Origin: Rhodoflexus caldus
Lineage (GTDB): Bacteria; Bacteroidota; Bacteroidia; Cytophagales; Thermoflexibacteraceae
Assembly (NCBI RefSeq): GCF_021206925.1
Contig: NZ_JAJPRF010000006.1
Span: 124,001 to 188,000, forward strand
Direction: 5' to 3'
Length of the DNA: 64,000 bases
Within the stretch, counting starts at the first letter, position 1. The number at the start of each line of letters is the position of its first letter. The notes beneath the pieces are model-generated. The model saw only the letters and a list, made by a program, of their open reading frames with translations, searched no databases and had not been told where the DNA came from. Of the stretch, positions 51,190 to 56,830 are shown piece after piece. The position numbers were made by a program, and so were the translations under genes.

Positions 51190-51338
51190 TTTTGTTTCCA
51201 GTCCTAACGGAATACCCCCCAATAAGGTTGCAGTCATACCGAAGGAATTTTTAGCCCATGCACACACAAACTTTCACCGATGACCAAATGAACGAACCAC
51301 CCCTACCCAAAAAATCCGCCTGTTAAGGAGGCGTTGCT

Positions 51339-51378
51339 GTTGCACGTCGCCGTTGCACGTCGCTGTTGCATGTTTTGC
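51339..51378. repeat. 13-bp tandem repeat
   Basis: Two units GTTGCACGTCGC[C/T] (51339-51351, 51352-51364) are followed by a degenerate third beginning GTTGCATG (51365). Period 13 bp means the repeats are off the helical turn. No function is evident. Confidence 0.6.
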
Positions 51379-51481
51379 ATTACCACCCATAAGCAACTAC
51401 TTTATTTTCAAATCGGCAAAAATTTTATCAATCCACTCTTGATTATTCACCTGCCAATGAGTAGTATTGCTTGTGAAGGAA

Positions 51482-51491
51482 GGGGGGGGGG
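51482..51491 (+). repeat. Homopolymeric G10 tract
   Basis: Ten G residues in a row lie 89 bp upstream of the methyltransferase start. G tracts of this length are prone to slippage in replication. Confidence 0.85.
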
Positions 51492-51580
51492 AAATACAGA
51501 TGTGGTGAAAACCATATTAGACTTCGCACATTAAGGACATTCCTCATTTGTGCTATTATAAAACCGATAAATAAACTGAA

Positions 51581-52930
51581 ATGCTTAAGTTTATAGACTT
51601 ATTCGCAGGTATAGGTGGATTTCATTTAGCCTTACAGAAATTAGGACATCAATGCGTTTTTGCTTGTGAAATCAATCAAACATTGGCAGACCTTTATGAA
51701 CAAAATTACGGTATAAAGCCCGAAGGCGATATAAAAAAAGTGGATATAAAAAGTATTCCTCCCCATGATATTTTATGTGCGGGTTTTCCTTGCCAACCTT
51801 TCTCAAAAGCAGGAAAAATGTTGGGAAGAAAAGATAATACACTTGGTAATCTTATTGATGAGATATTAAAAATTTTACATCATCACAAGCCTACTTTTTT
51901 TATTTTAGAAAATGTACCTTTCATAGCCAAGCAAGACAACGAAGATATGTGGCGTTACATGAAAAGTGAATTTAAAAGAGCAGGTTACAAATCTGATGAA
52001 AAAATTTATTCACCGCATCAATTCGGAATACCACAACATCGACAAAGAATTTATATTGTTGGTAGTCGTAGAGGACTTGAACACTTCTCTTGGATCGAGC
52101 CACAAGAAAAAATTCAAACAGATATTAAAAGTATTTTAGATAATAATCCTTCGGAAGCGAAAGCTATTGGAAAAGAAGAGCAGTATTGCTTAGACTTGTG
52201 GCAGGAGTTTATAGATTGTATTCCTAAAGACATACCCATACCTAAATTCCCTATTTGGGGAATGGAGTTTGGGGCAACATATCCAATCGAGGATGGAAAA
52301 ACACCTTTGCAACTTTCTGAAAAAGAGTTAGGTAATTACAAAGGTATATTTGGCAAATCTTTAAAAGGATTAAGTAAAGAAGAACAAGAAAAATACTTAC
52401 CAAGTCACGCATTTAATACGGATAAAAATGGGAATTATCCGCGTTGGAAAAAAAGATACATTCAGCAAAATAGAAATTTTTATAAAACCTATGAGAAAGA
52501 ACTCAAAAATGTAGTAGCTAAAATTGCTCAATTACCTATTGCAAGTTGGCAAAAACTTGAGTGGAATGTTGGAGATGGTGATAGAAAATTACGTAATTAT
52601 ATTATTCAGTTTAGAGCTTCAGGAATTAGGCTTAAAAAAACTGATTTTTCACCTTCGTTAGTGTGTACTAATACCCAAATTCCAATCATTGGTTGGGAAA
52701 ATCGATATATCACTAAAAAAGAAGGAGCAAGATTGCAAAGTATCGATAATATACAACTTCCTGAAAATTATGGCACTTGTTTTAAGGCTTTAGGAAATGC
52801 TGTTAATGTTGAAATCGTCTATAAAATTGCTGAAAGACTCATCAAAGAAGAGATAGTAAGCAATATAACAAAAATGAAGATTATCAAAAATGAGAAAAAC
52901 TTGAAATTGACTAGGAATGGAACAAATTAA
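51581..52930 (+). CDS. DNA (cytosine-5)-methyltransferase
   Basis: This 449-residue enzyme transfers a methyl group from SAM to C5 of cytosine in a specific DNA site. The family motifs are in order: DLFAGIGGF (residues 6-14), PCQPFS with the catalytic Cys (70-75), ENV (110-112), QHRQRIYIVG (152-161), then a long target-recognition region and GNAVNVEIVYKIAERL near the end. The recognition site cannot be read. The coding sequence is noticeably A+T-rich compared with the flanking genes. It overlaps the GHKL ATPase gene by 14 bp, so the two are translated together. In this setting the methyltransferase probably marks self DNA. Confidence 0.95.
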   Translation: MLKFIDLFAGIGGFHLALQKLGHQCVFACEINQTLADLYEQNYGIKPEGDIKKVDIKSIPPHDILCAGFPCQPFSKAGKMLGRKDNTLGNLIDEILKILHHHKPTFFILENVPFIAKQDNEDMWRYMKSEFKRAGYKSDEKIYSPHQFGIPQHRQRIYIVGSRRGLEHFSWIEPQEKIQTDIKSILDNNPSEAKAIGKEEQYCLDLWQEFIDCIPKDIPIPKFPIWGMEFGATYPIEDGKTPLQLSEKELGNYKGIFGKSLKGLSKEEQEKYLPSHAFNTDKNGNYPRWKKRYIQQNRNFYKTYEKELKNVVAKIAQLPIASWQKLEWNVGDGDRKLRNYIIQFRASGIRLKKTDFSPSLVCTNTQIPIIGWENRYITKKEGARLQSIDNIQLPENYGTCFKALGNAVNVEIVYKIAERLIKEEIVSNITKMKIIKNEKNLKLTRNGTN

Positions 52931-54485
52931 CCAAATCAATATACGTCCGAGTGTAAGTATCCTATCGGCTTTGCGGCATCTAAACTATAAAACTTGGTTT
53001 GCCCTTGCCGAGTTTGTAGATAACGCTATTGATAGTTACTTGAAAAATGAAAAAGAACTTAAAGTAGTTGAAGGAAATGATTTTAAGTTAATTGTAAAAG
53101 TCAATATCAATCCAACCGATAACAAAATAATAATAACAGATAATGCAGCAGGTATTCATCAAAAAGACTTTGAAAGGGCTTTAAAGACTGCAGAAATACC
53201 GCCAATCAATACAGGTTTATCCGAGTTCGGTATGGGTATGAAATCTGCAGCCTGTTGGTTTTCTGATTTTTGGATTGTTAAAAGTACGGCATTAGGCGAA
53301 ACAGTTAAGCGTACTGTAACATTTGACGTAAAAAAAATTGTTTTCCAAAAAATTGAAAATCTTGATGTCAGTAATGATACGGCAAAAGAGACCGAACATG
53401 GTACAATAATAGAATTACAAAATGTTCACAACTTACCAAAAAGAAGAGCAATCGGAAAAATTAAAGAGCATTTAACAAGTATTTATCGTGATTTTATTCG
53501 TCAAGGAGTACTTCAACTCTATTTCAATGATGAGATTTTAATTTTTGATGAACCAAAAATTTTGAAAGCACCTTTTTACAAAACACCTGATGCCGAACCA
53601 ATTTATTGGCGAAGAGAAATTCCTGAAAATTTTGAAATACGAGAAGGTTTAAAAGTAACCAAAGGCTTTGTTGCTATTTTGGAAACTATTGAAGCAGGAA
53701 AATCAGGATTAGCCATTTTCAGACGTGGTAGGGTTATCTTAGGTAGTGCTGATGAAGGCTTTAAACCCTATGAAATTTTTGGACAAGCAGGCTCATTTAA
53801 GGATAAACGTATTTTTGGAGAGCTACACATTGAAGGATTTCAAGTAAGCCATACGAAAGATGGTTTTAAAAACGATGATGATATGCAAACTTTTGTTGAA
53901 TTAGTTGCAGACTTCTTAGATGAAAGTCCGTCATTACTGAAACAAGCAGAAGGCTATCGTGTACGTCCGAATAATAACGATTATAAAAAATCAGCAACTG
54001 AAACCGTTAGAGAAACAGTTGAAACTGCAAAGAAAACTTTACCAAATCCTGTAAAGCAAATTATTGCTGAGGAAAAAGAACCTGAAAAGCCTGAACAGGA
54101 ACTAAGTCCAATTAACCAAGAAAATTCAAGCTATGAAACCTTTGAAATTAAATTTAATAATGCCGATTGGCTTATTGATGTTGAACTTTCTTGGGATACT
54201 AACTTGACTAATTGGATTGAGATTGGCGATAAATTCACGAAAAAGTATATTGAAGAAAATCCTAAGTTATACAGAAATGTCAGGCGTATCGGAATTAGAT
54301 TGGCTCTACGACATCCGTTTTGTGAGAAATTTGCAAGTACAGATAAAACAAGAATTGCCCCGTTATTAAGATTAGCAGTTGCTATTGGATTATCGGAAGT
54401 AATAGCAAGAGAGAGCGGAGTAAACAACTCTTCATTTTTCAGAAATATCATCAACAAATTACTAACTGAAGCATTATCAGAGTAA
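52917..54485 (+). CDS. MORC/Hsp90-type GHKL ATPase of a restriction-like system
   Basis: This 522-residue protein has a GHKL ATPase fold: N box AEFVDNAID (residues 31-39, E32/N36), G1 box DNAAGI (75-80) and G2 box SEFGMGMKSA (102-111). The following 120-350 part should be the S5-like transducer domain. The C-terminal part (about 350-520) contains ETVRETVETAKKTL and a distinct domain of unknown role. Relatives occur beside Z1 helicases and methyltransferases, and were described by Iyer, Abhiman and Aravind as prokaryotic MORC-like proteins (recalled, not checked). It lacks a visible nuclease motif. It ends four bases before the Z1 gene. Confidence 0.88.
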   Translation: MEQINQINIRPSVSILSALRHLNYKTWFALAEFVDNAIDSYLKNEKELKVVEGNDFKLIVKVNINPTDNKIIITDNAAGIHQKDFERALKTAEIPPINTGLSEFGMGMKSAACWFSDFWIVKSTALGETVKRTVTFDVKKIVFQKIENLDVSNDTAKETEHGTIIELQNVHNLPKRRAIGKIKEHLTSIYRDFIRQGVLQLYFNDEILIFDEPKILKAPFYKTPDAEPIYWRREIPENFEIREGLKVTKGFVAILETIEAGKSGLAIFRRGRVILGSADEGFKPYEIFGQAGSFKDKRIFGELHIEGFQVSHTKDGFKNDDDMQTFVELVADFLDESPSLLKQAEGYRVRPNNNDYKKSATETVRETVETAKKTLPNPVKQIIAEEKEPEKPEQELSPINQENSSYETFEIKFNNADWLIDVELSWDTNLTNWIEIGDKFTKKYIEENPKLYRNVRRIGIRLALRHPFCEKFASTDKTRIAPLLRLAVAIGLSEVIARESGVNNSSFFRNIINKLLTEALSE

Positions 54486-54489
54486 CGAT

Positions 54490-56706
54490 ATGGAAAATTG
54501 GACACCTATTGTTGGAGAAGAAACCGAGCAACTTTTAGAATACTTGAAACTTGATGAAGTTTCAACAAAAATACTGTTAAAAGAAACAAAGTCTATTTTA
54601 GCTCTATGTGGTAGCCCAAAACAACAGACTAATTCTGAAACAGGTCTTGTTTTTGGTTACGTGCAAAGTGGTAAAACGATGTCTTTTACTACACTTACAG
54701 CCTTAGCAAAAGACAATGATTATCAGATAATAATTGTAATCGCAGGCATATCAACTAACTTGCTTGACCAATCCACCAAAAGACTTGAAAAGGATTTAAG
54801 GCTGAATGAAAGGTTTGACAGAAAGTGGTTAGGTGTAAAGAAAAACCCGACTAATACATCAACAGACCGAGACGACATAAGCACCGTTCTGAAAGAATGG
54901 AAAAACCCTACTTTTCCCGAAGATGAAAGACGAACCGTTTTAATTACGGTTATGAAGAATCCACGACATTTACAAAATTTAATTGATGTACTACAACGTT
55001 TAGATTTACGAGAAGTGCCTACTCTGATTATTGACGATGAGGGCGACCAAGCAAGTTTAAATACTAAAGCGATGAGAAATGCTATGCGTGGGCTTACCGA
55101 GGAAGAACTATCCGAGCAAGATTTAAGTACGATTTACAGAAGAATAATTGAGTTGAAAGAAATATTACCACATCACACATTTATACAATACACAGCTACA
55201 CCGCAAGCTAATTTATTCATAAACATTTTAGATAGACTTTCACCAAACTTTATAAAGTTGCTTACGCCCGGTGATGCTTACACTGGCGGCTCAACTTTTT
55301 TTATTGATAACCATACACTTGTAAGACCAATTCCTATTGAAGATATAGCAACAGACGAAGAACCCTTAGAAACACCACCCCAAAGTCTGATTTATGCAAT
55401 GCAATTATTTTTCTTGGGAGTTGCCGCAGGAAAAATAAAAAAGGACACCAATAATCGCTCAATGATGATACACCCGTCAAGGTTACAACTTGACCAGAGG
55501 TTATATTTTGATTGGGCAAATAGTATCAAAGAAAGATTTGTTACCACACTTCAAATGGAAGATGATGAGTTTGATAAATTAGAACTTATCAAAGAATTTG
55601 AAAAAGCCTATCAAGATTTGAAAAGAACAGTACAAGACTTGCCGAGTTTTGAAAATTTGTTAGGAAATAAACTCAAAACAGATAGATTAGAACACGCCAT
55701 AAGTTCAACAAAAATAGAAGAAGTTAATAGCCGACAAGGAAAAACCCCTTTAATCAATTGGAAAGACCATTACGCATACATTTTGGTAGGAGGACAATCA
55801 TTAGACAGAGGATTTACAGTTGAAGGATTAACAGTTACCTATATGCCACGTCCTATTGGTGTTGGGACAGTAGATACCATTCAGCAAAGAGCAAGATTTT
55901 TTGGTTACAAGCGTAAATACTTGGGATATTGTCGTATTTATCTTGATGAACCAACTATAAACGCATACAGACATTATGTTGAACACGAGGAGGACTTGCG
56001 AAAGAGTTTAACCGAAAACAATCTTGCTAACCGACATTTAAATGATTGGGAAAGAGAGGCAGTTTTAGAAAGAGCGTATCAGTTAGCACGTAAAAATGTG
56101 TTTTCAAACGAGTTTGAACGATTTGATTTATCAAACGAGTGGTTTAGAATTTCAGCACCACACGATTTAGATAATATCATAGACAATAACAGAAAAGTTA
56201 CACAGTCTTTTATTACTTCAATCCAACATTTGCTACAAGAAGATAATGGACACGCAAAGCGAACAGATGAGCAGAAACATAGTGTTTGTAAGATTTCGGT
56301 TCGTCGGGCTTTTGACGACTATTTAATGAAATTGAAATTTACAAGAGATAGCGATAGTGAAGGTTTTACAGCCTTAAAAAGTGTGATTTTGAGGTATTTA
56401 GAGGCGTATCCAAATAGTGAAGCGACTATCTTCTTAATGAAAAAGGGACAAATCAGAGAACGTCAACTTACCAAAAAAGACGAGATACAACAACTTTTTC
56501 AAGGTAAAAACCCAAGAACAGGCGAAATTATCTATCCCGGTGATAGTGAAATAAAAGAATTTGCAAATTTGACAATTCAAATTCACAACCTAAACCTAAT
56601 TAACAGAGACACAGGTGAAGTTTTTGAGAATGTCTATACAATAGCTGTTTGGATACCTGAGTCAATGAATAAGAGCATCATCAGGCTTGGTAAACAAATT
56701 AACTAA
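54490..56706 (+). CDS. Z1-domain helicase-like protein
   Basis: This 738-residue protein has a superfamily 2-type motor with a Z1 domain: Walker A GYVQSGKT (residues 56-63), Walker B-like LIIDDEGDQAS (179-189) and the Z1 signature VGGQSLDRGFTVEGL with TIQQRARFFGY (motif VI-like). Z1 proteins are often labelled endonucleases, but no classic nuclease residues stand out; ATP-driven DNA translocation or remodelling is the safer reading. It follows the GHKL ATPase by four bases. The C-terminal 130 residues are of unknown fold. The gene ends the island. Confidence 0.9.
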   Translation: MENWTPIVGEETEQLLEYLKLDEVSTKILLKETKSILALCGSPKQQTNSETGLVFGYVQSGKTMSFTTLTALAKDNDYQIIIVIAGISTNLLDQSTKRLEKDLRLNERFDRKWLGVKKNPTNTSTDRDDISTVLKEWKNPTFPEDERRTVLITVMKNPRHLQNLIDVLQRLDLREVPTLIIDDEGDQASLNTKAMRNAMRGLTEEELSEQDLSTIYRRIIELKEILPHHTFIQYTATPQANLFINILDRLSPNFIKLLTPGDAYTGGSTFFIDNHTLVRPIPIEDIATDEEPLETPPQSLIYAMQLFFLGVAAGKIKKDTNNRSMMIHPSRLQLDQRLYFDWANSIKERFVTTLQMEDDEFDKLELIKEFEKAYQDLKRTVQDLPSFENLLGNKLKTDRLEHAISSTKIEEVNSRQGKTPLINWKDHYAYILVGGQSLDRGFTVEGLTVTYMPRPIGVGTVDTIQQRARFFGYKRKYLGYCRIYLDEPTINAYRHYVEHEEDLRKSLTENNLANRHLNDWEREAVLERAYQLARKNVFSNEFERFDLSNEWFRISAPHDLDNIIDNNRKVTQSFITSIQHLLQEDNGHAKRTDEQKHSVCKISVRRAFDDYLMKLKFTRDSDSEGFTALKSVILRYLEAYPNSEATIFLMKKGQIRERQLTKKDEIQQLFQGKNPRTGEIIYPGDSEIKEFANLTIQIHNLNLINRDTGEVFENVYTIAVWIPESMNKSIIRLGKQIN

Positions 56707-56830
56707 CAAAAAATTAAAACCTCTCCCAACACTACATTTGCAACAAAAACGGCATACTTGCTAAAATAAACTTTTTTCCTTTTTCGTGCAATGTAAAAGC
56801 AGCAGTCCCCCCTAACACACGCAGCGGCGG

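What the first reader, a model, noticed from the sequence alone, without database searches (positions are those of the whole stretch)
51581..56706. MORC-type ATPase, Z1 helicase and 5mC methyltransferase cassette without a visible nuclease
Three A+T-rich genes overlap or are four bases apart: a C5-methyltransferase, a GHKL (MORC/MutL-like) ATPase and a Z1-domain helicase-like protein. I recall published MORC-type restriction-modification clusters (Iyer, Abhiman and Aravind) that also encode a PD-(D/E)XK nuclease and often a Vsr or AIPR-type protein. None is seen here: the next gene is an unrelated minus-strand MORN protein. Either the island is a degraded remnant, or the effector is hidden in the GHKL or Z1 C-terminal domain, or this is a minimal, nuclease-independent variant. 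The last option would be new.
Basis: partly seen in the sequence, partly recalled or inferred. Interest (0 to 1): 0.75.

Follow-up and report, generated by a model that had tools for sequence, protein, structure and literature searches.

The report
Restriction cassette lacking its usual nuclease
This is a three-gene bacterial DNA-defence cassette (a DNA-marking enzyme plus two ATP-driven machines) whose relatives almost always carry a DNA-cutting enzyme as a fourth gene; here and in its closest relative that gene is missing, yet the other three look well maintained by selection, so the cassette may act without its own cutter.

Summary
A C5-methyltransferase, a MORC ATPase and a Z1 helicase lie in one A+T-rich block (14-bp overlap, then 4-bp gap). 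All active-site motifs are intact and no nuclease is present.

It belongs to a recognisable four-gene family: methyltransferase–MORC–Z1–DUF4420, where DUF4420 (PF14390) is a PD-(D/E)XK nuclease. This is Iyer's third MORC operon type, related to MZA. In 17 relatives (about 33–57% Z1 identity) the nuclease follows Z1 directly. The window and its closest complete relative (L002, 80% Z1 identity) lack it and form a 100/100 clade nested among nuclease-bearing loci. A third, truncated copy (L003) also has no nuclease after Z1.

No nuclease remnant, unlinked homologue or fused replacement was found: both C-termini align along their length with nuclease-bearing relatives. Amino-acid change between window and L002 is as constrained as between nuclease-bearing relatives. 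The block ends 20 bp after the Z1 stop, where a sister genome's sequence resumes.

So it looks like a derived, nuclease-less three-gene variant, probably functional, not fresh debris. How it acts (DNA blockade, or a borrowed nuclease) is inferred. Independent losses in each lineage are not excluded. New variant of a known kind.

The parts
51284..56725 (.). A+T-rich inserted or replaced block; homology with a sister genome (93% DNA identity) stops at 51283 and resumes at 56726
   Evidence: blastn of the window against L081 (G733, same genus); in L081 the same interval holds about 433 bp of unrelated A+T-rich DNA
51581..52930 (+). DNA cytosine-5 methyltransferase, 449 aa; motifs GFPCQPFS, ENV, QHRQR and GNAVN intact
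   Evidence: PF00145 E 8e-67, TIGR00675; motifs invariant in alignment A6; M.HhaI is the best PDB match
52917..54485 (+). MORC-type GHKL ATPase, 522 aa; N-box EFVDNAIDS, DNAAGI, GMGMKS, and the MORC signature GhXhhpXXRhl as GLAIFRRGRVI (residues 264-274)
   Evidence: PF13589; alignment A1; predicted fold matches Hsp90/TRAP1 and SMCHD1 ATPase modules
54490..56706 (+). Z1-domain superfamily-II helicase-like ATPase, 738 aa; Walker A GYVQSGKT, Walker B IIDDEGDQ, ATPQA, DTIQQRARFFG (= DThhQXuRhFG)
   Evidence: PF10593 E 7e-38; MzaC model, weak; alignment A2; predicted fold matches SF2 helicases
56707..56725 (.). Last 19 bp of the block after the Z1 stop, the place where relatives have the DUF4420 nuclease gene; no nuclease remnant
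   Evidence: sequence, junction, tblastn of 12 DUF4420 proteins at chance level

Best explanation
The cassette is a derived three-gene form of the methyltransferase-MORC-Z1-DUF4420 restriction-type system. Shown: the DUF4420 PD-(D/E)XK nuclease gene is absent from the window block, from L002 and from the 3' side of the L003 remnant, and the window/L002 clade is nested among nuclease-bearing loci; the other three genes are intact and constrained. Inferred: the nuclease was lost once in the ancestor of this clade, and the rest still works. The methyltransferase marks host DNA; the MORC dimer and the Z1 motor recognise and load onto unmarked incoming DNA with ATP; the outcome is a stalled or compacted invader (a DNA clamp or roadblock), or cutting by a nuclease encoded elsewhere. 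The retained methyltransferase argues that unmodified host DNA would still be harmed.
For: 17 collinear relatives carry DUF4420 directly after Z1. Window and L002 lack it and form a 100/100 clade nested within them in trees of all three proteins. NG86 dN/dS for window/L002 is 0.09, 0.06 and 0.07 (methyltransferase, MORC, Z1), against 0.05, 0.06 and 0.06 for the nuclease-bearing pair L049/L067 of similar divergence. No catalytic column conserved in nuclease-bearing relatives is lost in window and L002. C-termini are collinear with relatives. No DUF4420-type homologue in the window's genome (100% complete) or in L002's MAG, while the same query finds it in all 7 nuclease-bearing genomes searched. 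In L002 the three genes, and nothing else, lie between two copies of a ~100-bp repeat.
Against: Only two complete three-gene loci (window, L002) plus one truncated copy are known. dS is 1.9-3.0, near saturation, so dN/dS is rough. The nuclease is the edge gene, so separate losses in each lineage could mimic one old loss, and then most of the measured constraint would predate the loss. L002 ends 280 bp after Z1 and its MAG's completeness is unknown. The branch leading to the clade is longer than its sister's for MORC (0.58 against 0.28) and methyltransferase (0.44 against 0.26), and the last 138 residues of Z1 are somewhat less conserved than in L049/L067 (66% against 75%), which could mean a partly lost partner contact. 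No activity was tested.
Confidence: 0.5

Rival explanations
1. Borrowed nuclease: MORC-Z1 recognises unmodified DNA and a nuclease encoded elsewhere in the genome, of another family, does the cutting.
For: Iyer 2008 notes that relatives may use Vsr, HNH or other nucleases and that unlinked partners are possible (PMC2292703). Nuclease swapping is seen here: L057 has Vsr and an HNH gene in place of DUF4420; L035 has Vsr and AIPR and no DUF4420 between Z1 and AIPR.
Against: No DUF4420, no AIPR and no second close Z1 protein in the genome. Other nuclease families were not surveyed genome-wide.
Confidence: 0.25
2. Remnant: the nuclease gene was left behind or deleted at the edge of the cassette, and the three genes persist only for a while, or only the methyltransferase matters.
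For: Nuclease is the 3'-most gene; the block ends 20 bp after the Z1 stop; the site is variable, and a sister genome has 433 bp of other A+T-rich DNA there; in L003 the cassette has been overwritten by an Argonaute + REase pair, leaving only the 3' third of Z1.
Against: Intact frames and motifs in window and L002; constraint on MORC and Z1 no weaker than on the methyltransferase and equal to nuclease-bearing pairs; L002 at a different site lacks it as well.
Confidence: 0.17
3. Hidden nuclease: the C-terminal domain of Z1 or of the MORC protein is itself an unrecognised nuclease in the whole family.
For: Z1 C-terminus has family-wide invariant H597, D685 and Q697, and its predicted fold is alpha/beta.
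Against: No invariant D/E-x-K pattern; no Pfam domain beyond Z1 and the ATPase; no profile match to DUF4420; the listed Foldseek matches cover helicases and GHKL ATPases only, although the C-terminal domains could not be searched on their own; relatives with the same C-termini keep a separate nuclease.
Confidence: 0.08

Closest known systems
MORC / Z1-type SFII helicase / restriction-endonuclease-fold operons (third type of Iyer, Abhiman and Aravind 2008, PMC2292703)
   Same: MORC with its signature motif, Z1 helicase with DThhQXuRhFG, and a C5-methyltransferase, in one operon
   Different: The additional restriction-endonuclease-fold gene (E-D-ExK), described as consistently present, is missing
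Methyltransferase-MORC-Z1-DUF4420 four-gene loci of Bacteroidota and Rathayibacter (L027, L049, L050, L051, L067, L068, L088-L091, L052-L056, L028, L058)
   Same: Same gene order, overlapping genes, and proteins of the same length; Z1 33-57% identical
   Different: They have DUF4420 directly after Z1; window and L002 do not
MzaABCDE anti-phage system (Gao 2020, as cited in PMC9523054; NCBIfam MzaB/MzaC)
   Same: MORC ATPase and Z1 protein
   Different: Scores far below the equivalog cut-offs (MzaB 21.8 against 850 bits, MzaC 136.7 against 1500 bits); no AIPR or DUF4420 gene; methyltransferase first in the operon
Putative Z1 + PD-(D/E)XK + C5-methyltransferase system of PMC9523054 (2022), types I and II
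   Same: Shares Z1 and C5-methyltransferase core genes
   Different: There the PD-(D/E)XK protein is a core gene of all variants; here it is absent
L057, Hymenobacter plasmid NZ_CP095048
   Same: Methyltransferase-MORC-Z1 without DUF4420
   Different: Carries Vsr and an HNH gene instead, and its MORC and Z1 reading frames are split; about 41% Z1 identity

Membership tests
MORC (prokaryotic) | GHKL ATPase motifs plus S5-domain signature GhXhhpXXRhl | tested here: met
   EFVDN, DNAAGI, GMGMKS and GLAIFRRGRVI in the window protein (alignment A1); signature from PMC2292703
Iyer type-3 MORC operon | SFII helicase with C-terminal domain bearing DThhQXuRhFG (Z1) | tested here: met
   DTIQQRARFFG, PF10593 E 7e-38
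Iyer type-3 MORC operon | Additional gene of restriction-endonuclease fold with E-D-ExK | tested here: not met
   Absent in window and L002; present in 17 relatives with invariant E150, D176, E185, K187 (numbering of L068)
MzaABCDE | MzaB and MzaC above the curated cut-offs | tested here: not met
MzaABCDE | AIPR and DUF4420 components | tested here: not met
   No PF10592 in the genome (control rang in 1 of 14 genomes); no DUF4420 homologue (the protein search is the one with positive controls)
C5 DNA methyltransferase | Catalytic PCQ, ENV, QxRxR and GN motifs | tested here: met
   Alignment A6
Restriction-modification system | Methylation-dependent restriction of foreign DNA | not testable with these tools
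   Needs methylome and plating assays

The most novel reading that the evidence does not exclude
A MORC-Z1 machine that, with a marking methyltransferase, restricts unmodified DNA without any nuclease, by ATP-driven clamping or compaction of the invader, as eukaryotic MORC proteins silence DNA without cutting it.
Probability: 0.25. Interest if true: 0.8.

Novelty: new variant of a known kind. Interest (0 to 1): 0.5.

Why it matters
Prokaryotic MORC ATPases are thought to help nucleases in restriction systems, whereas eukaryotic MORCs compact and silence DNA without cutting. A natural MORC system that kept its methyltransferase, MORC and helicase but dropped its nuclease would let one ask directly whether the MORC-helicase part can block foreign DNA by itself, which bears on how eukaryotic MORC silencing arose. 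If it borrows a nuclease, it shows that the effector is exchangeable.

Tried and rejected
Hidden fused nuclease: lengths and C-termini match nuclease-bearing relatives; hhalign of the Z1 and MORC profiles against the DUF4420 profile gives probability below 1%; Foldseek of AlphaFold models returns GHKL ATPases and SF2 helicases only among the listed hits (models of moderate confidence, mean pLDDT 77 and 73). Nuclease remnant in the flanks: tblastn of 12 DUF4420 proteins against window, L002, L003 and sister flanks gave only chance-level matches (best E 0.03 of many). Unlinked DUF4420: none; the family-model search of the window genome had no positive control among its 14 control genomes, but the protein search did, in 7 relatives. 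Relatives in viral contigs: none by close-relative patterns; plasmids and phage records hold only distant relatives, 41% identity or less. YN00 dN/dS failed and the ML method gave unstable values for some pairs, so only NG86 is used. One literature search failed on a short term. A first submit attempt lacked fields.

Full report
What is there. Three + strand genes, 51581-52930, 52917-54485 and 54490-56706, encode a C5-methyltransferase, a GHKL ATPase and a Z1-domain protein. The block is strongly A+T-rich. The GHKL protein carries the MORC signature GhXhhpXXRhl (GLAIFRRGRVI), and the Z1 protein the DThhQXuRhFG motif (DTIQQRARFFG) of the third MORC operon type of Iyer et al. 2008 (PMC2292703). 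All ATPase and methyltransferase motifs are present.

Borders. A sister genome of the same genus (G733, 93% DNA identity) matches the window up to 51283 and again from 56726, 20 bp after the Z1 stop codon. In the sister the interval holds about 433 bp of different A+T-rich DNA, so the site is variable and is not a clean empty site. Nothing is left of a nuclease gene in the window's flanks.

Relatives. About 1,700 genomes were searched with the genome search, together with pattern scans of genome and viral contigs and of plasmid and phage records. Seventeen collinear relatives were read: L027, L028, L049-L056, L058, L067, L068 and L088-L091. In all of them a gene of about 320-340 aa follows Z1 directly. 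Those scanned are DUF4420/PF14390, a putative PD-(D/E)XK nuclease; the others match them by phmmer. Their alignment has invariant E150, D176, E185 and K187, the E-D-ExK pattern. Caveats: L052 starts inside MORC, L055 has a broken methyltransferase and MORC, L067 has two extra genes between MORC and Z1, and in L090 the contig ends inside the nuclease gene.

Loci without DUF4420. L002 (Bacteroidetes MAG; Z1 80%, MORC 76%, methyltransferase 72% identical) has the same three genes followed by 280 bp without a nuclease gene, then the contig ends. A repeat of about 100 bp lies on both sides of its three genes, with nothing else between. L003, from a Cytophagales MAG of the same family as the window's genome (G825), keeps only the last third of Z1 (83% identical), again with no nuclease after it; the rest was replaced by an Argonaute-type PIWI gene and a REase gene. 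A more distant plasmid locus, L057, has Vsr and HNH genes instead, and the MZA-like locus L035 has Vsr and AIPR with no DUF4420 between Z1 and AIPR.

History. In maximum-likelihood trees of all three proteins, window and L002 form a 100/100 clade nested among nuclease-bearing loci. The simplest reading is one loss in their ancestor. Because the nuclease is the last gene, separate losses at the edge are not excluded.

Selection. NG86 dN/dS between window and L002 is 0.094 (methyltransferase), 0.057 (MORC) and 0.067 (Z1); for the nuclease-bearing pair L049/L067 it is 0.054, 0.063 and 0.062. dS is near saturation, so these are rough, but the comparison between pairs is fair. No catalytic column conserved in nuclease-bearing relatives is lost in both window and L002. 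The last 138 residues of Z1 are slightly less conserved in window/L002 (66%) than in L049/L067 (75%), though another nuclease-bearing pair, L053/L054, shows 65%; no firm conclusion follows.

Hidden or distant effector. The MORC (522 aa) and Z1 (738 aa) proteins match the length and C-termini of those in nuclease-bearing loci. AlphaFold models match GHKL ATPases (Hsp90/TRAP1, SMCHD1) and SF2 helicases. Profile comparison with DUF4420 is negative. No DUF4420-type protein is found in the window's genome or in L002's MAG, while the same query finds it in 7 of 7 nuclease-bearing genomes. AIPR is also absent from the window's genome.

Mechanism. Shown: gene content, intact motifs, constraint, absence of the nuclease. 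Inferred: methylation marks self; MORC and Z1 load on unmarked DNA using ATP; the effect is a physical block or cutting by an unlinked nuclease. Keeping the methyltransferase suggests that the ATPase part is still dangerous to unmarked DNA. These steps need experiments.

Known or new. The four-gene family is described (Iyer 2008; a Z1 + PD-(D/E)XK + methyltransferase set in PMC9523054; MZA of Gao 2020, cited there). The window is not MZA: both Mza models score far below cut-off. I found no description of a three-gene, nuclease-less form in the papers searched, but the library holds only open-licence papers, so prior description cannot be excluded.

Noticed in passing
L002 29-127 and 5607-5708: A repeat of about 100 bp (73% identity, E 1e-9) with hairpin-like cores flanks the three-gene block on both sides; the arms change together (GCCTGCT..AGCAGGC against GCCTTTT..AAAAGGC). 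It could be an attC-like cassette border or another repeat element.
   Followed up: partly
L003 1830-4837: An Argonaute PIWI gene and an Aga-type helical REase gene abut a truncated Z1 remnant: one defence cassette apparently overwritten by another.
   Followed up: partly
L067 4914-6904 and L050 3515-5522: A pair of genes (about 398 + 263 aa and 395 + 275 aa; the first resembles ParB-like PD-Lambda-5_A / PDC-M38A models) sits between MORC and Z1 in L067 and next to the nuclease gene, convergent, in L050.
   Followed up: partly
L053 569-1297, L054 9713-10438, L055 8600-9328, L056 9656-10399, L052 4900-5718: A conserved gene of about 240 aa follows the nuclease; in L054 it matches MTaX1 (PF20296, Methylase-associated X1).
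   Followed up: partly
L081 6838-7270 (sister genome G733): At the site of the cassette the sister carries about 433 bp of A+T-rich DNA with no clear gene, so the site appears to exchange cargo.
   Followed up: partly
window 51331-51370: Tandem-like GTTGCACGTCGC repeats just upstream of the methyltransferase; similar sequence in L082 12411-12467 of another genome of the genus.
   Followed up: no
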